A stretch of DNA of 64,000 nt from a virus, in the IMG/VR virus record IMGVR_UViG_3300020420_000008, positions 82,610 to 146,609 of that record; one strand, 5' to 3'. The notes under the pieces are model-generated. The model searched no databases. It was given only the letters and a program-made list of their open reading frames with translations, and was not told the DNA's origin. Shown here piece by piece: positions 20,326 to 48,570 of this stretch. The translations under genes and the position numbers were made by a program. Within the stretch, counting starts at the first letter, position 1. Each line of letters opens with the position of its first letter.

Positions 20326-20625
20326 ATGGCATTGACTGATGCAGACGAAAAAGCTGAAGTGATAGCACTATACGGCATTCAATTATTTTCAGGTGAAGGT
20401 GAATTTCCAACTGCCGATACAGCCTTAACAGTTTATCGTGCTGATTTGGGTATAGATGAAAAATATCTAGCTAGTGATTATCATTCTCCTATGCCAGAAA
20501 ATGAGGCTGACTTAATAAACTGGTGGATGGGTGGTACAAGAGATGGTAAGCATGAAATTGTAATGATAGGAACACACACGTTAACTGATCCAGATAATGT
20601 CTGGACAGAATGGACAGGGAGTTAA
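20326..20625 (+). CDS. small hypothetical virion-region protein, 99 aa
   Basis: Acidic, Trp-rich near the end (INWWMGGTRDG, VWTEWTGS), with a helical N-terminus (LTDADEKAEVIALYGIQLF). It is first in a late transcript and 3 nt from the 367-residue gene behind it. It is probably a structural or assembly partner of that protein. No family is recognised. Confidence 0.65.
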   Translation: MALTDADEKAEVIALYGIQLFSGEGEFPTADTALTVYRADLGIDEKYLASDYHSPMPENEADLINWWMGGTRDGKHEIVMIGTHTLTDPDNVWTEWTGS

Positions 20626-20628
20626 GAT

Positions 20629-21732
20629 ATGTATATAAAATATGTTTCATCATTATCGAGTGACGAATATAGTAGAGCCACGTTTATGCTGGATGTTGCT
20701 GGTTTAGCAACTGGTACTAAAACTTCAACTGATGATTTAAATTCTTTGTCTTGCAACAAAGCCGCCAGTGTAATTTCAGGAACTAGCCCTACGTCAGGCA
20801 TATATACTCAATCAGCATCTTCTATATCTAATACTTCACAAGATGATTACTATCTTTGGATAAACAAATATCATTATGCTAAAGGTAATCCATCTACTTT
20901 TCAAGCACAAAATAGAATACAAATGGGCTGGACTGATAGTTATTATTTTAGACTTAGACATCAAGACAAAGACGGCGGCAACGCAATGTATACTAATAGT
21001 GGCTTTTGGGGACAATATTCCTCAACATCTTACAACTATGGTAAATTGTTCTATGCAATGAGTTCGATTCAAGAAGCTCATATTGTTCTTAATGATACAA
21101 CTTTTTTTATAATGATAAAAAGTACCGGAACTGAAACAAGTATAGATCACGCTTACTGGAGCTTGAATGATATAGAATATGTTCAATCGATTGATGATTA
21201 TCAGTATCAAGCTAATAACAAATATAGTCCTTTCATGAGTTGGTGGGGCTTTAATCTGAATACCATGTATAATAATGGTACCTCTAATACATCAACTAAT
21301 AATCATAGAAATGGTATGTATAGATGTCAATATGTTGATAGACAAGGCACAATGAGAAATTGTACTCCTTATGATAGTTACAATTATGCTTTTGGACACG
21401 TAACAACAACAACTGGTAAGTATTGTAGTATGCACCCTAGAATGGGAGAAAGACAGTTTAAAGTTACAGGAACTGGGGCGGCAAATCATCATATGTTAGT
21501 ACCTTGCGTATATGACGGTACCATGAAAGATGAAACTTCTGATCCTAGAAAAGGTGCTATGCCGAATGTATTTCGTACTACAGACAACTATTTTGATGAT
21601 GGTGACGTATTATTAGATGGCTCAACTAGATACAGAGTTTTTAGAGTACATAAAACAGGACATGCAAACTTTACTTCAGCAACAGAAGAAGCTTTTTACG
21701 CATTTCCAGAAAATAATGTTCCTTACAGTTAA
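20629..21732 (+). CDS. hypothetical fibre/receptor-binding protein, 367 aa
   Basis: Rich in Tyr, Trp, Asn, Ser and Thr with few repeats, unlike the shaft proteins before it; such composition fits a globular tip or lectin-like domain. Segments such as FWGQYSSTSYNYGKLFYAMS and SPFMSWWGFNLNTMYNN show dense aromatics. There is no signal peptide or membrane segment. It lies in the same transcript as the preceding 99-aa gene and a 65-aa gene behind. The receptor role is an inference from composition and location. Confidence 0.65.
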   Translation: MYIKYVSSLSSDEYSRATFMLDVAGLATGTKTSTDDLNSLSCNKAASVISGTSPTSGIYTQSASSISNTSQDDYYLWINKYHYAKGNPSTFQAQNRIQMGWTDSYYFRLRHQDKDGGNAMYTNSGFWGQYSSTSYNYGKLFYAMSSIQEAHIVLNDTTFFIMIKSTGTETSIDHAYWSLNDIEYVQSIDDYQYQANNKYSPFMSWWGFNLNTMYNNGTSNTSTNNHRNGMYRCQYVDRQGTMRNCTPYDSYNYAFGHVTTTTGKYCSMHPRMGERQFKVTGTGAANHHMLVPCVYDGTMKDETSDPRKGAMPNVFRTTDNYFDDGDVLLDGSTRYRVFRVHKTGHANFTSATEEAFYAFPENNVPYS

Positions 21733-39989: not shown

Positions 39990-41047
39990 GAATAGCTATC
40001 ATTAATGACACTCACTGGGGTGCTAGAAATGATTCACAACAATTCTTAGATTATTTCAAAAAGTTTATAGATAATATATTTCTACCTTACATAGATGAAA
40101 ACAAAATAGATACTGTCATACATCTTGGTGATATCGTAGATAGACGTAAGTACATAAACTATGTCACACTTAGACATCTAAAAGATAATCTGATACAGCC
40201 GTTGTTAGATAGAAAAGTGAACCTAAATGTTATCATTGGTAATCATGATGTACCCTACAAGAATACTAATGAAATAAACTCTATGGCAGAATTGTTCGAT
40301 AAGCATAGTGTAAAATATTATTCAGAACCTGAAGTCGTAACATTTGATGGTACTGATATACTACTTGTGCCTTGGATAAACACATCTAATTATGCGAACT
40401 CTATGGATATGATAAAGAATACAAAAGCACAGATTTGTATGGGACATCTAGAGATAGCAGGTTGTACTCTCATGAGAGGTATAACTTCCGATCATGGTAT
40501 TAGTATAGATACTTTCAAACATTTTGACACAGTACTTTCAGGACACTTTCATACAAAATCTACAAGTAATAATGTGCATTATCTTGGTACACAATATGAA
40601 CTGACTTGGACAGATTACCAAGATCCTAAAGGCTTTCATGTGTTTGACACAAACACTAGAGAGATAGAGATGGTACGAAATCCATATCGTATGTTTCATA
40701 AAGTATTCTATGATGATGTAAAGAATACTTCAGAAGAGATACTACACAAAGATTACTCCATGTTTGGTAACACATATGTCAAAGTGATTACACAAGAAAA
40801 AGAAAATCCATATACATTTGATTTGTTCATGGACAAACTCTATCAAGAAAATCCTATCGCAGTACAGATTGTAGATGATCACTTGAACTTACATTTAGAA
40901 GGTGATGACGATTTAATCAATCAAACTCAAGATACTGTGACTATATTATCTAACTACATTGAGAACATGGAGACTAATGTACCAAAGAAAAGACTCGACA
41001 ACTTAATGAGAACCTTGTATAATGAAGCTTTATATATGGAAGTGTAA
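39986..41047 (+). CDS. gp47: recombination nuclease subunit gp47 (Mre11-like)
   Basis: 353 residues (T4: 339). Calcineurin-like phosphoesterase motifs appear in order: NDTHWG at 7-12, HLGDIVDRR, IIGNHD, MGHLEIAG and SGHFHTKS. With gp46 it forms the Mre11-Rad50-type nuclease that resects DNA ends, degrades host DNA and supports recombination-dependent replication. The start overlaps the gp55 stop (ATGA) and the stop overlaps the gp46 start. Confidence 0.95.
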   Translation: MRIAIINDTHWGARNDSQQFLDYFKKFIDNIFLPYIDENKIDTVIHLGDIVDRRKYINYVTLRHLKDNLIQPLLDRKVNLNVIIGNHDVPYKNTNEINSMAELFDKHSVKYYSEPEVVTFDGTDILLVPWINTSNYANSMDMIKNTKAQICMGHLEIAGCTLMRGITSDHGISIDTFKHFDTVLSGHFHTKSTSNNVHYLGTQYELTWTDYQDPKGFHVFDTNTREIEMVRNPYRMFHKVFYDDVKNTSEEILHKDYSMFGNTYVKVITQEKENPYTFDLFMDKLYQENPIAVQIVDDHLNLHLEGDDDLINQTQDTVTILSNYIENMETNVPKKRLDNLMRTLYNEALYMEV

Positions 41048-42759
41048 TGATATACTTTGAAAATATTCGATGGAAGAACTTTCTATCAACAGGTAATCAA
41101 TGGACAAACATACCTTTAAACACACACTCAAATACAATTATAGTAGGTGAGAATGGTGCTGGTAAGTCAACGATACTTGATGCACTATGTTTTGTACTGT
41201 TTAACAAACCTTTTCGTAAAATAAGTAAATCGCAAATGTTAAACTCAATCAACATGGGCGGACTTGAAGTAGAAGTAAAATTTAGAATTGGTAAGATGAA
41301 CTATACTATACGTAGAGGTATGAAACCAAATATATTTGAAATACATCAAGACAGCACTTTACTCAATCAACCAGGTTCAGCTAGAGATTATCAGAAGCAA
41401 CTAGAAGAAACTATACTTAAACTAAACTTTAAATCTTTCACACAGATAGTTGTTCTTGGTGCATCTACATTTATACCTTTCATGCAACTGTCTGTGTCGC
41501 ATAGACGAGAGGTGATAGAAGATTTATTAGATATTAGTATATTCTCTAATATGGGTAAACTATTGAAAGATAGAGTTGCAGAGAACAAAGAATCTATACG
41601 TGACTCAGACTACCAGATAGATTTACTTAAAACAAAAATAGATACACAACAATCCTACATTCGAAAACTAAAAGAGCAGAATGATGATACAATAGCTACA
41701 TTTCAAAACTTGATAGATGGTGCCCAAGATGAAATCAATGACTTAACACAACTATCAAATGGTATAGTTGAGAAGATAGAGTTTCTATCAGAAGATGTTG
41801 CACCTCTCAAAGTCAATGAAAATAAGAAAGCTAAACTTATCGACATTCACAATAGAATGCAAAGAAAGATAAAGAATGCGGAGAAGAGAATAGCTTTCTT
41901 CAATGATAATGCGGAGTGTCCTACTTGTTCTCAAGATATCAGTGATGATATTCGTGATAGTAAAATATCAGAAACAAATGCTACCATAGTAGAAGTAAAA
42001 GCTGGTGAAGGCGAGTTGCAAAAACAATTATCTGAACTCGATGGTAAAATAAATGATATGTTATCAGCACAACAAAGATTGGTAGGATTACAAACAGAGA
42101 TTGCTGAAAACAATTCTAGTATAAAATCTCTGAATAAATCTATACAGAAAAACCAGAAAGAAATAGAGAAGATAAAAGATACTGGTGTCGATAGTGCTGA
42201 AACATATGAGAAACTTAAACTTTATGAAGACGATAAGAGACTCAACGAACAGAGAAAAGAAGAGTTAGTTAATGATAGAGAACTATTCAGTGTAGCAGTA
42301 AATATGCTCAAAGATGATGGTATCAAAAAGAAAATCATCAAACAGTATGTGCCAGTTATGAACAAACTTATCAACAAATATTTGGCTGCCTTAGATTTCT
42401 TTGTACTGTTCGAACTAGATGAACAGTTCAATGAAGTTATTAAGAGTAGACATAGAGATGAGTTTTCGTATGCATCATTCTCGGAAGGTGAGAAAATGAG
42501 AATAGACTTAGCATTACTATTCACATGGCGTTCTATAGCAAAACTCAAAAACTCTATCAATACAAATCTACTAATACTTGATGAAGTATTCGATGCATCT
42601 CTAGATAATAATGGTTGTGATGAATTTCTAAAACTATTGAACCAGCTAGATAACCAGACAAATGTATTTGTAATATCTCATAAAGGTGATATACTATCTG
42701 AGAAGTTTAAGAATCAGATACGATTTGAGAAATATAAAAACTTTAGTAGGGTGGCATAA
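41047..42759 (+). CDS. gp46: recombination nuclease ATPase gp46 (Rad50-like)
   Basis: 570 residues (T4: 560). Walker A at 34-42 (GENGAGKST), a long coiled coil interrupted by the zinc-hook CPTC at about residue 292, the signature SFSEGEKMRIDLAL and Walker B LLILDEVFD. It is the partner of gp47, whose gene it overlaps by one base. The end overlaps the methyltransferase start (TAATG). It is complete and apparently functional. Confidence 0.96.
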   Translation: MIYFENIRWKNFLSTGNQWTNIPLNTHSNTIIVGENGAGKSTILDALCFVLFNKPFRKISKSQMLNSINMGGLEVEVKFRIGKMNYTIRRGMKPNIFEIHQDSTLLNQPGSARDYQKQLEETILKLNFKSFTQIVVLGASTFIPFMQLSVSHRREVIEDLLDISIFSNMGKLLKDRVAENKESIRDSDYQIDLLKTKIDTQQSYIRKLKEQNDDTIATFQNLIDGAQDEINDLTQLSNGIVEKIEFLSEDVAPLKVNENKKAKLIDIHNRMQRKIKNAEKRIAFFNDNAECPTCSQDISDDIRDSKISETNATIVEVKAGEGELQKQLSELDGKINDMLSAQQRLVGLQTEIAENNSSIKSLNKSIQKNQKEIEKIKDTGVDSAETYEKLKLYEDDKRLNEQRKEELVNDRELFSVAVNMLKDDGIKKKIIKQYVPVMNKLINKYLAALDFFVLFELDEQFNEVIKSRHRDEFSYASFSEGEKMRIDLALLFTWRSIAKLKNSINTNLLILDEVFDASLDNNGCDEFLKLLNQLDNQTNVFVISHKGDILSEKFKNQIRFEKYKNFSRVA

Positions 42760-43289
42760 TGGGCAAGCGAAGTGATTTTGAAAGAAAAGAGAGAGATTTC
42801 TATCCTACACCAGAAGAGGCAGTTTTACCTTTATTACCTCACATAGAGAACGCTTTTAAATTTATAGAACCTTGTGCTGGTGATGGTTCATTGACAAGAC
42901 ATCTAATGAAATATAAAGATCCTTGGTGTGTACTACAATCTGATATAGAACCGAAACATGGTGTACGTGAGGGCGATGCATTTGATATAGAAGCAGACTT
43001 GTATTCTCATGTGGATTATTGTATTACTAACCCACCTTGGGATAGAAAGATACTACACCCACTAATAGAAAAATTAACAAGCATAGCACCAACTTGGCTA
43101 CTATTTGATGCTGATTGGATACACACGAAACAAAGCAAACCTTATTTAAAACATTTAAAAAAAGTAGTGAGTGTTGGTAGAGTTAAATGGATACCAGGAA
43201 CAAAGTCAGTGGGTAAAGATAATTGTTGCTGGTACTTTTTCACACCTGCATATGAATATGGTATAATAGAATTTTATGGAAGAGAATAA
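42759..43289 (+). CDS. DNA methyltransferase-like protein (NPPW amino-MTase)
   Basis: 176 residues. FYPTP at 14-18, the SAM-binding EPCAGDGS at 37-44 and the catalytic NPPW at 91-94 are those of N6-adenine or N4-cytosine DNA methyltransferases of the small phage type; NPPW is the amino-MTase form. A target-recognition domain is minimal, so specificity cannot be read. It is fused to the end of gp46 by a one-base overlap and followed by the accessory block 43291-46256. It may modify phage DNA against restriction. RNA or small-molecule methylation cannot be excluded. Confidence 0.85.
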   Translation: MGKRSDFERKERDFYPTPEEAVLPLLPHIENAFKFIEPCAGDGSLTRHLMKYKDPWCVLQSDIEPKHGVREGDAFDIEADLYSHVDYCITNPPWDRKILHPLIEKLTSIAPTWLLFDADWIHTKQSKPYLKHLKKVVSVGRVKWIPGTKSVGKDNCCWYFFTPAYEYGIIEFYGRE

Positions 43290-43290
43290 A

Positions 43291-43497
43291 ATGTGGAATG
43301 TGCCAAATATATTAAAATTTAAAAAACCTGAAGTAGAATCTAAAGAAATAGAAATAAAAGAAGTAGATACTAGAGTAAACATACACACACTCTACAAACA
43401 TAGATGGGTTTGGTATCATTTGATATTATGTATACAAGTGATCTTGACAAACATACTTTTAGTTGGTATACTAGTAACATTAGCAATAAAATTATGA
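43291..43497 (+). CDS. single-pass membrane protein, 68 aa
   Basis: An acidic/basic first half (KPEVESKEIEIKEVDTRVNI) and a hydrophobic segment of about 25 residues (LILCIQVILTNILLVGILVT) at the C-terminus, giving one membrane span with the N-terminus likely inside. I chose the ATG at 43291 because GGAAGAGA lies 7 nt upstream; a start at 43276 would place that site inside the gene. It sits between the methyltransferase and the DruA-like gene. The function is unknown. Confidence 0.65.
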   Translation: MWNVPNILKFKKPEVESKEIEIKEVDTRVNIHTLYKHRWVWYHLILCIQVILTNILLVGILVTLAIKL

Positions 43498-43503
43498 GAG
43501 ACA

Positions 43504-44811
43504 ATGACTAATAGAGATTTATACAGACTCAACGAACAAGAACATAAAGATAAAGATATATCAAGGATATACAAAACTTGGACAGAGAGTGAAGATTTAG
43601 ATTCTATACCTGATATAGACTCTAAGCAATTATCAGAAGATTTAACAAGCGACTTAACAGAAGTATGTTCTATGAACGTATCAGAATATACTCTATTTAA
43701 AAAATGGCTTGAGATACAAGGTAAATATCCTACAGAGAAAAGAAACACATTATTTGATGGTGTGCAACGAGTTTTACTAGATGATAGTCAGTCTAGAACT
43801 ATATCTAGAATTAGAAGTCAAATCTGGAAACCAGAGAGTGTTGACGATTATATGAAACTAGAACCTGAAATGGTTTTATGTAATAAGAATCCTGATGAAA
43901 TTGCTCAATATAATACTCTAAGATCCTTTATCAGCACTGCCGAAAATAATAATAATGTTGGTAGAAATCTATACTACTATATTATAGATAAAGTTACAAA
44001 AAAATATCTAGGCACAATCTGTATGTCTTCTGATTATCTAGATTTAACACCAAGAGATAATTATATTGGTTGGACTAGAGAAAAGAAAACCGAAGATAAG
44101 ATGATAAACTATACTACAGTTGGCTCTACAATTGTACCAACACAACCTCTAGGTTTTAATTATGTTGGTGGTAAGTTGCTTGCTCTATTATGTTTATCTG
44201 ATACAGTACAGAAAGATTGGAAAGAACAGTATGGTGATACATTAGTATCTGTAACTACAACATCACTATATGGAAAAGCAAAAGTTGGTGGTATGTCACA
44301 ATATGATAATCTCAAACATTGGAAGAAGATGGGATATTCACAAGGTTCTGTAGCGTATAAACCAAAGAAAGAAACAACGAAACGATTACGTGACTGGTTA
44401 AAAAAGTATTATTCTGAAAAATACTTTGAATGGTATGTTGCACTCAAACCTAGTGGACAACCATACAAACGTGATCACAAGAATCGTTCACACCAATTCG
44501 CATTCTCAAAGTTAGGTATAGATAAGTCTATAGTAAGATCCGAACATCAAAGAGGTATCTACTATTCACCACTATACACAAACACTTGTGAGTTTTTGCG
44601 AGGCGAGATTTCAGAGGACAAACTTGTCAAATCTTTTGATACAAGTACAGAGTATCTAGTCAATCTCTGGAAGGACAAGTATGCACGAAAGCGAATAACC
44701 TCTCTCATAAACAGTGATCGTGTGTCCTCTGAAACTTTATTCTATGACGATTTAGCTTATCTTGATTGGGAAGATTGTAAAGAAAAGTACTTGACTCAAG
44801 TAGGTAGATAA
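43504..44811 (+). CDS. DruA-like protein (DUF4338)
   Basis: 435 residues. The middle has the DUF4338 pattern: NLYYYIIDKVTKKYLGTIC-like strand, SSDYLDLTPRDNYIGW at about 176-191, LLALLCLSD, DWKEQYGDTLV at about 238-248 and YSQGSVAYKPKK near 281. DUF4338 is the domain of DruA in Druantia anti-phage systems and also occurs alone in phages and mobile elements. The last 130 residues are basic with many Tyr and Trp. The biochemical activity of the family is not settled. It lies 6 nt after the membrane-protein gene. Assignment by pattern recognition; none of the other Druantia genes is present. Confidence 0.7.
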   Translation: MTNRDLYRLNEQEHKDKDISRIYKTWTESEDLDSIPDIDSKQLSEDLTSDLTEVCSMNVSEYTLFKKWLEIQGKYPTEKRNTLFDGVQRVLLDDSQSRTISRIRSQIWKPESVDDYMKLEPEMVLCNKNPDEIAQYNTLRSFISTAENNNNVGRNLYYYIIDKVTKKYLGTICMSSDYLDLTPRDNYIGWTREKKTEDKMINYTTVGSTIVPTQPLGFNYVGGKLLALLCLSDTVQKDWKEQYGDTLVSVTTTSLYGKAKVGGMSQYDNLKHWKKMGYSQGSVAYKPKKETTKRLRDWLKKYYSEKYFEWYVALKPSGQPYKRDHKNRSHQFAFSKLGIDKSIVRSEHQRGIYYSPLYTNTCEFLRGEISEDKLVKSFDTSTEYLVNLWKDKYARKRITSLINSDRVSSETLFYDDLAYLDWEDCKEKYLTQVGR

Positions 44812-44820
44812 TGCTATTAT
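44791..44820 (+). promoter_or_regulatory. sigma-70-type promoter
   Basis: TTGACT at 44791-44796, an 18-nt spacer and TATTAT at 44815-44820, across the end of the DruA-like gene. It gives the next gene its own transcript with a leader of about 25 nt that contains AAGAGAGG. Confidence 0.55.
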
Positions 44821-44852
44821 AGAATCATCAAATTAAAGAGAGGTATTATATT

Positions 44853-46256
44853 ATGGACGTATGCGAAAGGCTAGAAAGCCCTCTCAGGGAAGTTATGCTT
44901 TTACCTGATTTTATAGAGAAGGCTGGATTATTAACAACACAAACAATGGTAGCAGATTACTCTCACCAAGCTAATAGAAAAACTAGGTGGAGTGAAGAGA
45001 TGATGAGTATGTTTTTTCGTTCATCTGTTCTTAATCAACTTCCAGCACCTATAGTTATTGTAGATTTAGAGAAGTGTTTAGAACATGCTAACGAGACAAA
45101 TAATCAATCGGATATTGTGTACTTTACATTATGGTTTATTCAAAATGGTGCAAAATATTTAATATTAGATGGTAACAATAGAATTATGGTTACAAAAAAA
45201 ATATTAAATGATGAAGTAAAGTTACCAACAGATATTCCTTTACATACAGGACCTGATGGTAAACTAGTACAAACATCAAATATAAAGTTAGGTGCTACTT
45301 TTTCTACATTAGATAAAGCTTTAAGAGATTCTTTTGATACTAGTGAAGTAGAAGTTCATGTATACACAAAATTAACAGAAGTAAAAATGGGCTTAGTTTT
45401 TCAAATCTATAATTTAGGTTCACCATTAATTGATCCTGAATTTAGAAATTCTTTCGGCGGACTCATTGTTAAAGCTTATAGAGATTTAGCAGATAAATGG
45501 GAAAATTTGTTTGAAAAATTAGATATGACATCTACAAATATTAATAGAAGATCGATTGAGCAGTGGATGGCGTATGCTTTCAATATCTGGTTTCATGACA
45601 TTAAAAAACCTTGTACTAAAAAGGTTTTAGATAATCTAAGTTTACCAAATCAAAAATCTACTGAACTAGAAATTATTGGTTTTGAAAAAGCTATGAATAC
45701 TTTTTTGAAAATTGTTGATACTAGTAAAATTGTTGGTTTACAAAAAAGTAATGCAGTTTTAGATGCTTGGGCAATATATGTTCAGCAAACTAGAACTGAA
45801 AATAAAGTATTTAAAAATGACGAAACTATTTTAAAGTTTACAACAGATGTTGCTGACAGTATCTATCATCTATTAGAATTAAAAGGTGATGATGGTAAAG
45901 CTAAAACATATGAAACAGGTAAAGATGTTTTTAAAACTTTCAAAACCTTACTAGGTAACAAAACTGCTAGTAATAATAATGAAAGAAATAAGTTAATCTT
46001 AGAACAGTTAGTTGACTTAGATAAATATTTTGTACCTAAAACTAAAAGAGTTGCATCAGACTTAGATGCATCAATTGTCGCCAATAGTCAAAATTGGAAA
46101 ACTAAAGATGGTACTCCTATCCCATATGATCAACTTAAAAAATTTCACAAGGGACATATAGTACCTTTTTCAAAGAGCAAAGATTCTTCTAAAGAAAACC
46201 TTATAATACAAACACCTGAAGAAAATTTAAAGCTAGGTGCAAAAGAAGCAATTTAA
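44853..46256 (+). CDS. DUF262-HNH protein (GmrSD-like nuclease family)
   Basis: 467 residues. The N-terminal DUF262/ParB-like motif LILDGNNRI (Asp106-Arg110) corresponds to the DGQQR motif that binds or hydrolyses nucleotide in GmrSD-type enzymes. The C-terminus has an HNH-like motif: His432, His435 in HKGHIVP and Asn449, followed by N and K. The long helical middle is typical. Relatives include modification-dependent restriction enzymes and other defence proteins. The gene is richer in A+T than its neighbours, suggesting separate origin. The targets and any self-protection are unknown. RBS AGAGAGG. Confidence 0.75.
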   Translation: MDVCERLESPLREVMLLPDFIEKAGLLTTQTMVADYSHQANRKTRWSEEMMSMFFRSSVLNQLPAPIVIVDLEKCLEHANETNNQSDIVYFTLWFIQNGAKYLILDGNNRIMVTKKILNDEVKLPTDIPLHTGPDGKLVQTSNIKLGATFSTLDKALRDSFDTSEVEVHVYTKLTEVKMGLVFQIYNLGSPLIDPEFRNSFGGLIVKAYRDLADKWENLFEKLDMTSTNINRRSIEQWMAYAFNIWFHDIKKPCTKKVLDNLSLPNQKSTELEIIGFEKAMNTFLKIVDTSKIVGLQKSNAVLDAWAIYVQQTRTENKVFKNDETILKFTTDVADSIYHLLELKGDDGKAKTYETGKDVFKTFKTLLGNKTASNNNERNKLILEQLVDLDKYFVPKTKRVASDLDASIVANSQNWKTKDGTPIPYDQLKKFHKGHIVPFSKSKDSSKENLIIQTPEENLKLGAKEAI

Positions 46257-46259
46257 AGG

Positions 46260-46288
46260 TTGACATTCATATCGTTTTGAGTCATACT
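46260..46288 (+). promoter_or_regulatory. sigma-70-type promoter
   Basis: TTGACA at 46260-46265, a 17-nt spacer and CATACT at 46283-46288, in the gap before the gene at 46318. Confidence 0.65.
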
Positions 46289-46317
46289 GTAAGAGTAATA
46301 AGAGAGAGTGATTCGTA

Positions 46318-48570
46318 ATGACATTAAATATTCAATCAAAAGAAGTTCTTGCACGGCTACTCGCCACTGAGAACATTACTGTTGAGCATCAAAATGTTTC
46401 TACTGCGAGTTTCAATGTAAAAGATCGAGTTCTAATATTGCCTATGTGGGACGATATGCAGAACTTCACATATGATCATTTAGTTGGACATGAAGTAGGA
46501 CATGCTTTATTCACTGATGCTGACGAATGGGCTTCAGCTATCGAAAAGCACGGCAAGAACTTCAAAGGTTTTCTAAACATCGTAGAAGATGCTAGAATAG
46601 AAAAGAAAATCCAGAGAACATATCCTGGTTTGAAAAGATCCTTCATTCAATCATACAAGAAAATGTTGAGTGAGGGTTTTTTCGGTAGAGATGAAACAGA
46701 AATCAATACTTTCGAACTTATTGATAGACTCAATGTTTACTTCAAGTGCGGTATGTCAACTGGTACAAAATTTGCTGATGATGAAAAGAAGTGGTTAGAC
46801 ATTATCGCTAAGATAGAAACTCAAGATGAAGCTTACAAAGTTGCTCTTGAGTTATTTGAGTTAGCAAAAGAGAAAAAAGAAAAAGAGCAACAGGCTCAAA
46901 AAGAGTCAGAAGAGGAGATGCAAGAAGATGGAGAAGATGATGATAATTTCAGCTTTGCTGACGGTGACATGGATTATGACGATTATGATATCGATGAAGA
47001 TGGAGACGATAGTTCTGAAGATGGCTCTAGCGAAGGCGAAAGCGAAGACTCAGATTTAGAAGAAACTGAAGAAGAACTAAAAGGTTCTGGTGAGAAGAGC
47101 GACTCTGAAGATAAAGAAGAAGAAGTAGAAACACCAGTTCAACAAGTTTCACATTCAAAAGTCGGTGGTGAGTCACCTGAGCCTCTAAATCCTAATCTAC
47201 CTATTGCAGAAACTGACGCTTTGTTAGAAGATAACATAAAGTCTTTAAGTCCTACAAATGGTAAAGCAGTTATCAATGTGACACTTGATATGAACTTAAA
47301 GACATATCAAGATAGAATTTTTAGTTACAAGAAAATACTTTCTGATAAAGATACTGGCGGTGCGATACATGCTGGTTCTGGTATGTACAAAGATTTTCAA
47401 GTCAACAATAAAAAAGCTATCAACTACATGGTAAAAGAATTTGAAATGAAGAAAAAAGCTTCTGAGTATAAGAGAGCAACAGTTTCTAAAACTGGTGTTC
47501 TTGATACACTCAAGATGAACAACTACAAATTCTCTGATGATATCTTCAAGAAAATGACAATCGTTCCTGATGGTAAAAATCACGGACTAGTAATGTTCAT
47601 AGATTGGAGTGGTTCTATGGCAAGCAATCTTTCTAACACTGTTGATCAGTTGATTAATTTAGTTAGCTTTTGCCGACAAGTTCAGATACCTTTTCAAGTT
47701 TATGCTTTCAGCGATAACAGTACACTAGCTTATGATATGTTTGGTAATAGAGAAGCTAAAGAAAAAATGAGAGTCAATACAAAAGGTTATACTACTCTAC
47801 AAGATGATTTTCACCTACTTGAGTTCTTCAACAATAAAATGTCAAGAACTGAGTTTCAGAAAATGTGTGCTTTTGTACTAGCAGTTGGTAAGTATTGGGA
47901 AAATAGATACAGACTCGATAGTAAGTATGGCGAATATTGGGTTCCAAGAAAGTTCTGGTTGTCAGGTACTCCTTTGAATGATGCAATACTTTCTGCTCAT
48001 GCAATAGTAAAAGCTTTTCAAAAGACTAATAGAATTGACATAGTGAATACAGTATTCCTAACTGACGGTGCTAGTAACTATTCTTACTACAATAGAGATT
48101 ATGCTACTAGAGCAAACATTGCACCATGGAATGAGACTTGGATATTCACGAATGAAGTTACTAAAAAGTCTTTACGATTAACTCAAAGCGGTACAAATAG
48201 ACTTGGTATCAATACAACTCCGACACTTCTAAAGTCTCTAGCTGACTACACAAATTCGAATGTGATTGGATTTCACATTCTACCTAAAAACAAGAGAACT
48301 GCACTAAATGATATGGGACACGATTTAAAGCACCACCAAAAAGAGAGTATGTGGGCTAGATTACTTCACGATTCATTTGTAGTGAATACCACAAATGGTT
48401 ATACTAAGCAGTTTCTAGTTCAAAGTTCAAAGCTTGCAACATCTAATGGTGCTATCGAAGTTGACGATGGTGCTACAAAAGGAAAGATTAGACAAGCTTT
48501 CAAAAAAGCTACTACTGGTTCTAGAACTAGTCGAGTGATGTTATCACAATTTATTGAATTAGTAGCTTGA
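46318..48570 (+). CDS. metallopeptidase-like and VWA-domain protein (CobT-like)
   Basis: 750 residues. HEVGH at 58-62 with Glu90 in VEDARIE is a zinc-peptidase-like HExxH site. An acidic linker with many Asp/Glu lies at about 190-265. A von Willebrand A domain follows with the MIDAS motif DWSGS (Asp429, Ser431, Ser433) and later TDGAS. Proteins of this plan in marine T4-like phages are often called CobT-like or peptidase. The MoxR/CobS-like ATPase follows, forming the usual AAA-VWA pair that remodels or inserts cofactors into a partner protein. Own promoter at 46260. The substrate is unknown. Confidence 0.85.
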   Translation: MTLNIQSKEVLARLLATENITVEHQNVSTASFNVKDRVLILPMWDDMQNFTYDHLVGHEVGHALFTDADEWASAIEKHGKNFKGFLNIVEDARIEKKIQRTYPGLKRSFIQSYKKMLSEGFFGRDETEINTFELIDRLNVYFKCGMSTGTKFADDEKKWLDIIAKIETQDEAYKVALELFELAKEKKEKEQQAQKESEEEMQEDGEDDDNFSFADGDMDYDDYDIDEDGDDSSEDGSSEGESEDSDLEETEEELKGSGEKSDSEDKEEEVETPVQQVSHSKVGGESPEPLNPNLPIAETDALLEDNIKSLSPTNGKAVINVTLDMNLKTYQDRIFSYKKILSDKDTGGAIHAGSGMYKDFQVNNKKAINYMVKEFEMKKKASEYKRATVSKTGVLDTLKMNNYKFSDDIFKKMTIVPDGKNHGLVMFIDWSGSMASNLSNTVDQLINLVSFCRQVQIPFQVYAFSDNSTLAYDMFGNREAKEKMRVNTKGYTTLQDDFHLLEFFNNKMSRTEFQKMCAFVLAVGKYWENRYRLDSKYGEYWVPRKFWLSGTPLNDAILSAHAIVKAFQKTNRIDIVNTVFLTDGASNYSYYNRDYATRANIAPWNETWIFTNEVTKKSLRLTQSGTNRLGINTTPTLLKSLADYTNSNVIGFHILPKNKRTALNDMGHDLKHHQKESMWARLLHDSFVVNTTNGYTKQFLVQSSKLATSNGAIEVDDGATKGKIRQAFKKATTGSRTSRVMLSQFIELVA

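What the first reader, a model, noticed from the sequence alone, without database searches (positions are those of the whole stretch)
42759..46256. Phage-borne block of methyltransferase, membrane protein, DruA-like and DUF262-HNH proteins
Four consecutive genes after 46 are not T4 core genes. The first is an NPPW amino-methyltransferase, the third carries a DUF4338 pattern (as in DruA of Druantia), and the fourth joins a DGNNR DUF262 motif to an HNH motif (as in GmrSD-type enzymes). Modification, a membrane component and two defence-type nuclease-like proteins together suggest an inter-phage exclusion or anti-host-defence cassette. I do not know this exact combination as a described system.
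Basis: partly seen in the sequence, partly recalled or inferred. Interest (0 to 1): 0.75.

Follow-up and report, generated by a model that had tools for sequence, protein, structure and literature searches.

The report
Phage DNA-modification slot with DruA-like acyltransferase
Between two conserved genes of a T4-like water phage sits a gene pair, a DruA-like protein with an acetyltransferase fold and a sensor-nuclease, in the exact place where its closest relatives carry a DNA-sugar-coating enzyme, which suggests that the DruA family chemically marks DNA and that such phages swap marking and cutting genes here.

Summary
The four ORFs are real and lie where stated: an orphan amino-methyltransferase, a 73-aa single-span membrane protein, a DruA-family protein (PF14236, E 1.5e-22) and a very divergent DUF262-HNH protein. 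They are not a four-gene system. Of 94 other loci with the DruA-like gene, only one (L002, a close relative) has the same set, and its DUF262-HNH gene is a 23%-identical substitute. The methyltransferase and membrane protein recur in T4-like phages without the other two.

The real unit is smaller. DruA + DUF262-HNH (43504-46256) is a block with sharp edges. Close relatives (gene 46 96-98% identical) match the window up to 43500 and again from 46290, but carry a TET-associated DNA glycosyltransferase (TAGT) with two other proteins instead. T4 and T6 are reported to differ similarly (beta-glucosyltransferase versus TAGT).

The DruA-like protein is not nuclease-like: its AlphaFold model (pLDDT 89) hits GNAT acetyltransferases almost exclusively, in line with a published note that DUF4338 is a GNAT domain.

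Best reading: a DNA-hypermodification slot holding a Mom-like acyltransferase and a GmrSD/SspE-like nuclease, probably aimed at competing DNA. Fold and exchange are shown; chemistry and target are inferred. The window's HNH motif may be impaired.

The parts
42759..43289 (+). Orphan amino-methyltransferase (EPCAGDG ... NPPW), 176 aa; neighbour of the slot, not part of the exchanged block
   Evidence: phrog_799 DNA methyltransferase 6.5e-35; recurs directly after gene 46 in many T4-like contigs without DruA
43276..43497 (+). Small protein, 73 aa, one predicted C-terminal membrane span; neighbour of the slot
   Evidence: sequence; no family match; 73 related loci in varied positions
43504..44811 (+). 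DruA-family (PF14236/DUF4338) protein, 435 aa, predicted GNAT-fold acyltransferase; first gene of the exchanged block
   Evidence: PF14236 1.5e-22; AF2 pLDDT 89.2, pTM 0.84; PDB hits mostly GNAT; invariant VPxQPxGxNxxGGKLL motif at 211-226
44853..46256 (+). Divergent DUF262-HNH protein, 467 aa (DGNNR at 106-110; H435, N449, N458; G434 where relatives have Asp); second gene of the exchanged block
   Evidence: family by intermediates; AF2 model weak, pLDDT 66
43501..46289 (.). Extent of the stretch with no DNA similarity to close relatives L182, L204, L261, L262, L264, which carry 116 aa + TAGT + 419 aa here
   Evidence: blastn: window matches end at 43498-43500 and resume at 46290
44791..44820 (+). 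Sigma-70-like promoter match (TTGACT-18-TATTAT) at the end of the DruA-like gene, also present in L002 before its different DUF262-HNH gene
   Evidence: consensus match only, promoter matches in the region are no more numerous than in shuffles
46260..46288 (+). Sigma-70-like promoter match (TTGACA-17-CATACT) before the peptidase gene, at the right edge of the block
   Evidence: consensus match only
41047..42759 (+). Left landmark: gene 46 (recombination nuclease subunit)
   Evidence: (SMC_N/AAA_23), synteny with gene 46 of Pelagibacter phages
46318..48570 (+). Right landmark: phrog_459 peptidase
   Evidence: phrog_459 6e-189

Best explanation
The interval between gene 46 (with its methyltransferase and membrane-protein neighbours) and the peptidase gene is an exchange slot for DNA-hypermodification genes in this lineage of T4-like phages. 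In this phage it holds a two-gene block. (1) The DruA-like protein is a GNAT-fold acyltransferase that most likely transfers an acyl-type group from a CoA donor to bases of the phage's own DNA, as Mom of phage Mu does in kind, and so marks or protects it. Shown: DruA-family membership, predicted GNAT fold, a conserved acyl-CoA-type motif, replacement of its block by a DNA-glycosyltransferase block. Inferred: that the substrate is DNA, and the chemistry. (2) The DUF262-HNH protein is a phage version of the GmrSD/BrxU/SspE class: a nucleotide-binding DUF262 sensor of DNA modification joined to an HNH nuclease, most likely aimed at DNA other than the phage's own (a competing phage, or the host). 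Shown: the family, and the exchange at this place. Inferred: sensing and target. The window's allele may be altered or weak, because the Asp before the HNH histidine is Gly.
For: DNA similarity to relatives with 96-98% identical gene 46 stops at 43500 and resumes at 46290; the block is replaced by TAGT (PF20691 7.9e-43; phrog_842) and two other proteins. TAGT is in all six relatives' records and not in this phage's 146.6-kb record; DruA is in none of those six; no TAGT among the DruA loci. Published precedent for different DNA-modification enzymes at one syntenic place in T4/T6 (PMC13390438). DruA model hits GNATs almost exclusively; DUF4338 called GNAT in PMC10853773; conserved motif. DruA-like gene sits among replication genes, between 44 and 62, in cyanophages. 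DUF262-HNH relatives in bacteria carry GmrSD_N + HNH, one beside a DNA methyltransferase and helicases on a plasmid. Jumbo-phage precedent for Mom domains fused to endonucleases (PMC7824862).
Against: No chemistry is shown; GNATs modify proteins, tRNA and small molecules too. No sequence link to Mu Mom. Single PDB hits are weak (best E 0.018). DruA and DUF262-HNH are mostly not adjacent in other phages and some long records with the nuclease lack DruA. The six TAGT records are fragments, so absence of DruA there is not proven. TAGT could act on other acceptors; no thymidylate-synthase-type base hydroxymethylase was found in these records and the Tet_JBP search had no working control. The window's HNH deviates at G434 and is a very long branch.
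Confidence: 0.4

Rival explanations
1. The DruA-like GNAT modifies a protein (for example RNA polymerase or a replisome component) or tRNA of the host during takeover, and DUF262-HNH is an unrelated neighbour. The slot is simply a place where accessory genes come and go.
For: Most GNATs act on proteins or small molecules, and phage GNATs such as Rac modify RNA polymerase (PMC7824862). The slot also holds peptide deformylase, 2OG-oxygenase, JmjC/cupin and MazG genes in other phages.
Against: In the closest relatives the exchanged block carries a DNA-type glycosyltransferase; the family's best-known member is in a DNA-targeting defence system; in cyanophages the gene is embedded in replication genes.
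Confidence: 0.33
2. DUF262-HNH is a free-standing homing-type endonuclease that spreads between co-infecting phages into intergenic places; DruA is a resident gene, and the sporadic, swapped distribution of the nuclease reflects homing rather than defence.
For: Sporadic presence: directly after DruA only here and in L002, after the CobS/MoxR gene or after the hsp gene in others; near-identical flanks with a foreign allele between them in L002.
Against: DUF262 sensor domain and 460-aa size are those of GmrSD-type restriction enzymes; in the closest relatives the whole DruA + DUF262 block is exchanged, not the nuclease alone; members up to full length are stable at one place over large divergence (L336-L347).
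Confidence: 0.15
3. DruA plus DUF262-HNH act as a phage-borne restriction-modification pair: DruA marks self DNA and the nuclease cuts DNA without that mark.
For: Adjacent, co-oriented and exchanged as one block; all cyanophages with a full-length relative of the nuclease also have a DruA-like gene.
Against: The nuclease was exchanged while DruA stayed 96% identical (L002); nearly all DruA loci lack it; in S-SSM7 the two genes are over 100 kb apart; nucleases without DruA exist.
Confidence: 0.1
4. One reading: methyltransferase, membrane protein, DruA and DUF262-HNH act together in exclusion or anti-defence.
For: The four genes are adjacent and co-oriented here and in L002.
Against: One of 94 other DruA loci has the set. 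The methyltransferase and membrane protein stay in place in relatives that lack DruA and DUF262-HNH. The membrane protein occurs in many other places.
Confidence: 0.04

Closest known systems
DruA of the Druantia type I defence system (PF14236 / DUF4338)
   Same: Same Pfam and PADLOC family.
   Different: No Druantia partners next to it; no MrfA-type Zn domain (PF09369), expected of the DruE helicase, in the record; a stand-alone, widespread phage gene placed among replication genes.
DruA-like proteins of Synechococcus phages (Phold paper, PMC12774648; S-PRM1)
   Same: Homologous over the central GNAT region, 35-41% identity.
   Different: Located between genes 44 and 62 there; N- and C-terminal parts diverge; no DUF262-HNH neighbour.
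DUF4338 proteins of Pelagibacter phages Mosig EXVC030M and HTVC008M
   Same: 51-55% identical, same place after gene 46 and before the peptidase.
   Different: Flanking genes differ (2OG oxygenases, peptide deformylase, MazG; JmjC/cupin); no methyltransferase, membrane protein or DUF262-HNH.
Mom-family GNAT DNA modifiers (phage Mu; jumbo phages)
   Same: Predicted GNAT fold in a phage; Mom domains are joined to endonucleases in jumbo phages (PMC7824862).
   Different: No sequence similarity to Mu Mom detectable; nuclease here is a separate DUF262-HNH protein; DNA acylation not shown.
GmrSD / BrxU / SspE modification-sensing nucleases
   Same: DUF262 (DGxxR) N-terminal part and HNH-type C-terminal part.
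   Different: DGNNR in place of DGQQR; HNH rather than DUF1524; in a phage; window allele has GH for DH.
T4 beta-GT / T6 TAGT exchange locus
   Same: Different DNA-modification enzymes at one syntenic position in related phages (PMC13390438); the same kind of exchange here with TAGT.
   Different: Here one of the alternatives is a DruA-like GNAT with a nuclease, not another glycosyltransferase.

Membership tests
DruA / DUF4338 protein family | Match to PF14236 over its curated cut-off | tested here: met
   80.5 bits against 27, E 1.5e-22, profile 44-297 of 297
Druantia defence system | DruE (YprA-like helicase) and other Dru proteins beside DruA | tested here: not met
   Neighbours are gene 46, methyltransferase, membrane protein, DUF262-HNH, peptidase; PF09369 MZB absent from the record with working controls
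GNAT acyltransferases | GNAT fold with acyl-CoA motif between strand 4 and helix 3 | tested here: met
   AF2 pLDDT 89; top PDB hits almost all GNAT, prob up to 0.90, but E at best 0.018; invariant VPxQPxGxNxxGGKLL placed between strand 204-212 and helix 218-229. Predicted model, not a solved structure
Mom DNA modification enzymes | Sequence relation to Mom | tested here: not met
   hhalign with Mu Mom: probability 0.2%
Mom DNA modification enzymes | Acyl-type modification of adenine in DNA | not testable with these tools
   needs nucleoside mass spectrometry
GmrSD-type (DUF262 + HNH) nucleases | DUF262 / GmrSD_N domain | tested here: inconclusive
   No direct profile match; relation only through intermediates: L163 2.9e-4 under cut-off, bacterial relatives up to 6e-28; DGNNR conserved
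GmrSD-type (DUF262 + HNH) nucleases | Intact HNH active site | tested here: inconclusive
   H435, N449, N458 present, but Asp before H is Gly and the GG is lost in the window allele; L002 and nearly all others intact; HNH_4 21.7 bits against cut-off 22
GmrSD-type (DUF262 + HNH) nucleases | Nucleotide-dependent cleavage of DNA by modification state | not testable with these tools
   needs purified protein
Amino-DNA methyltransferases | Motif I and motif IV (NPPW) and family match | tested here: met
   EPCAGDG and NPPW; phrog_799 6.5e-35; no Pfam match
   1 of 94 other DruA loci; methyltransferase and membrane protein occur without the rest

The most novel reading that the evidence does not exclude
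DUF4338/DruA proteins are a widespread family of DNA acyltransferases, so Druantia type I would involve DNA modification; and in T4-like phages whose hosts have almost no restriction systems, DruA- and TAGT-type marks together with phage-borne DUF262-HNH nucleases form a modification/restriction arms race among the phages themselves.
Probability: 0.17. Interest if true: 0.8.

Novelty: new variant of a known kind. Interest (0 to 1): 0.5.

Why it matters
No paper read here states what DruA does in Druantia. A natural exchange of a DruA-like gene block for a DNA-glycosyltransferase block between nearly identical phages is a functional clue and makes a direct test possible: look for a modified base in phages that carry the gene. 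DruA-like genes are very common in aquatic T4-like viruses (a capped search found at least 595 stretches), so a new DNA mark there would change how phage-host and phage-phage conflict in sea and lakes is understood.

Tried and rejected
Four-gene unit: rejected by the neighbourhood census. DruA as nuclease-like: rejected by predicted fold. Direct sequence link to Mu Mom: none. A shared N-terminal part with DndC (E 0.0012) was checked across 43 homologues; only 2 match, so it was dropped. The relatives' 419-aa protein as a second DUF262/ParB-like protein (suspected from its NGNSF motif): no support. The PDB fold search with the DUF262-HNH model gave only weak hits, among them ParB-like PadC and Cas9 HNH, because the model is poor. 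Tet_JBP search had no working control and says nothing; no thymidylate-synthase-type enzyme in the record or its relatives' fragments. Pattern searches with the window's own DUF262-HNH sequence found no relative; using L002 and the L163 relative as query found 40 loci. Placement of the window DUF262-HNH in a tree is unreliable because of its long branch.
Full report
Setting. The window is positions 82610-146609 of a 146,609-base viral record. Genes 47 and 46, a phrog_459 peptidase, a CobS/MoxR-type ATPase, the sliding clamp, genes 44 and 62 and regA follow the order of T4-like marine phages. The nearest isolates by the DruA-like protein are Pelagibacter phages Mosig and HTVC008M at 51-55%, so the host is uncertain.

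The four genes. ORF1 is a compact orphan amino-methyltransferase (phrog_799). ORF2 is a 73-aa protein with one hydrophobic span; its start overlaps the end of the methyltransferase gene by 14 nt. ORF3 is a DruA-family protein (PF14236 at 1.5e-22; PADLOC DruA). ORF4 matches no DUF262 model directly and HNH_4 only just under cut-off. Through L002's protein it joins a family of phage and bacterial DUF262-HNH proteins.

Are they a set? In 94 loci from other viruses that carry the DruA-like gene, the gene usually stands after gene 46, most often behind a peptide deformylase gene (Pfam check), and before either the peptidase or the downstream replication genes. Only L002 has the methyltransferase, the membrane protein and DUF262-HNH around it. 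The methyltransferase stands after gene 46 in many T4-like contigs without DruA, and the membrane protein is common between genes 47 and 46 or after regA. In cyanophages the DruA-like gene lies between genes 44 and 62. The four-gene unit is therefore not supported.

What is exchanged. Against contigs L182, L204, L261, L262 and L264, whose gene 46 protein is 96-98% identical, the DNA matches the window up to about 43500 and again from 46290. The missing stretch is exactly DruA + DUF262-HNH. They carry a 116-aa protein, a TAGT glycosyltransferase (PF20691 7.9e-43, phrog_842) and a 419-aa protein instead. L274 and L301 have TAGT with other proteins, including further glycosyltransferase-like ones, in the same slot. 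TAGT is in all six records and not in the window's record. DruA is in none of those six, though they are fragments, and no TAGT lies in the DruA loci. In L002 the DruA-like protein is 96% identical to the window's, the flanking DNA is nearly identical on both sides, and only DUF262-HNH is replaced by a 23%-identical relative. T-even phages give a precedent: T4 beta-GT and T6 TAGT at syntenic positions (PMC13390438).

What DruA is. An alignment of 43 phage homologues gave a model with pLDDT 89 and pTM 0.84. The first 50 PDB hits are almost all GNAT acyltransferases; single E-values are weak (best 0.018) but the agreement is broad. Strand 204-212 is followed by the invariant VPxQPxGxNxxGGKLL leading into helix 218-229, the layout of the GNAT acyl-CoA motif (own knowledge). 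PMC10853773 calls DUF4338 a GNAT domain. PMC12774648 had already noted DruA-like structures in Synechococcus phages. No sequence link to Mu Mom was found.

What DUF262-HNH is. The bacterial relatives have GmrSD_N and HNH domains; one lies on a Rhizobium plasmid beside a DNA methyltransferase and helicases. Forty viral loci were found. In several T4-like contigs it lies a few genes downstream of DruA, but long records with the nuclease and without DruA exist. The window's copy keeps DGNNR, H435, N449 and N458 but has G434 where relatives have Asp and lacks the GG; it is a very long branch, and its model is poor. Impaired cleavage is possible.

Mechanism. The evidence favours a modification slot: a GNAT that marks DNA, and a DUF262-HNH protein that tests and cuts DNA in a different state of modification. 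Known DUF262 proteins sense modified DNA and hydrolyse nucleotides (PMC10952713). The substrate and target here are inferences. PMC7029224 reports almost no restriction-modification in SAR11; if this phage infects such hosts, rival phages are the likelier target. Rivals are a protein- or tRNA-modifying GNAT, a homing-type nuclease gene, and a strict restriction-modification pair.

Novelty. The parts belong to known families, and phage DruA-like proteins have been reported. New here, as far as the open library at hand shows, are the exchange of a DruA + DUF262-HNH block with a TAGT block in near-identical phages, and a phage family of DUF262-HNH proteins that recurs near DruA.

Noticed in passing
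L132:5704-5766, L111:4117-4179, L106:3736-3879, L153:3705-3844 and others, mostly between the DruA-like and peptidase genes: A compact tRNA-Gly-like RNA (63-70 nt, GCGG...CCGCTCCA, with a tiny or missing D-arm) lies where the window has DUF262-HNH. Covariation supports the fold (score 0.445 against 0.151 in shuffles; 85% of cells paired against 35-50% when slid), yet ARAGORN and Rfam at gathering thresholds find nothing.
   Followed up: partly
window 43276-43497: The 73-aa membrane protein has at least 73 related viral loci, often between genes 47 and 46 or after regA; a recurrent small T4-like phage membrane protein with no family.
   Followed up: partly
L262:5605-6861, L182:6110-7366: The 419-aa partner of TAGT in the relatives has no match in phage records, no PHROG and no convincing Pfam family.
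   Followed up: partly
L352 record (G018:C1:4552-5847 and 20536-21483); HTVC008M: Some phages hold two DruA-like genes.
   Followed up: no
window 43504-44811, residues 9-91 of the protein: Weak match of the N-terminal part to the C-terminal part of DndC (E 0.0012); only 2 of 43 homologues repeat it.
   Followed up: yes
BFVD entries A0A3G4ZXG3 (Faunusvirus), A0A5K0UAJ3 (Yasminevirus), A0A3G4ZRA1 (Dasosvirus): Uncharacterized giant-virus proteins are strong structural matches to the DruA-like model (E 2.5e-19 to 5.9e-10).
   Followed up: no
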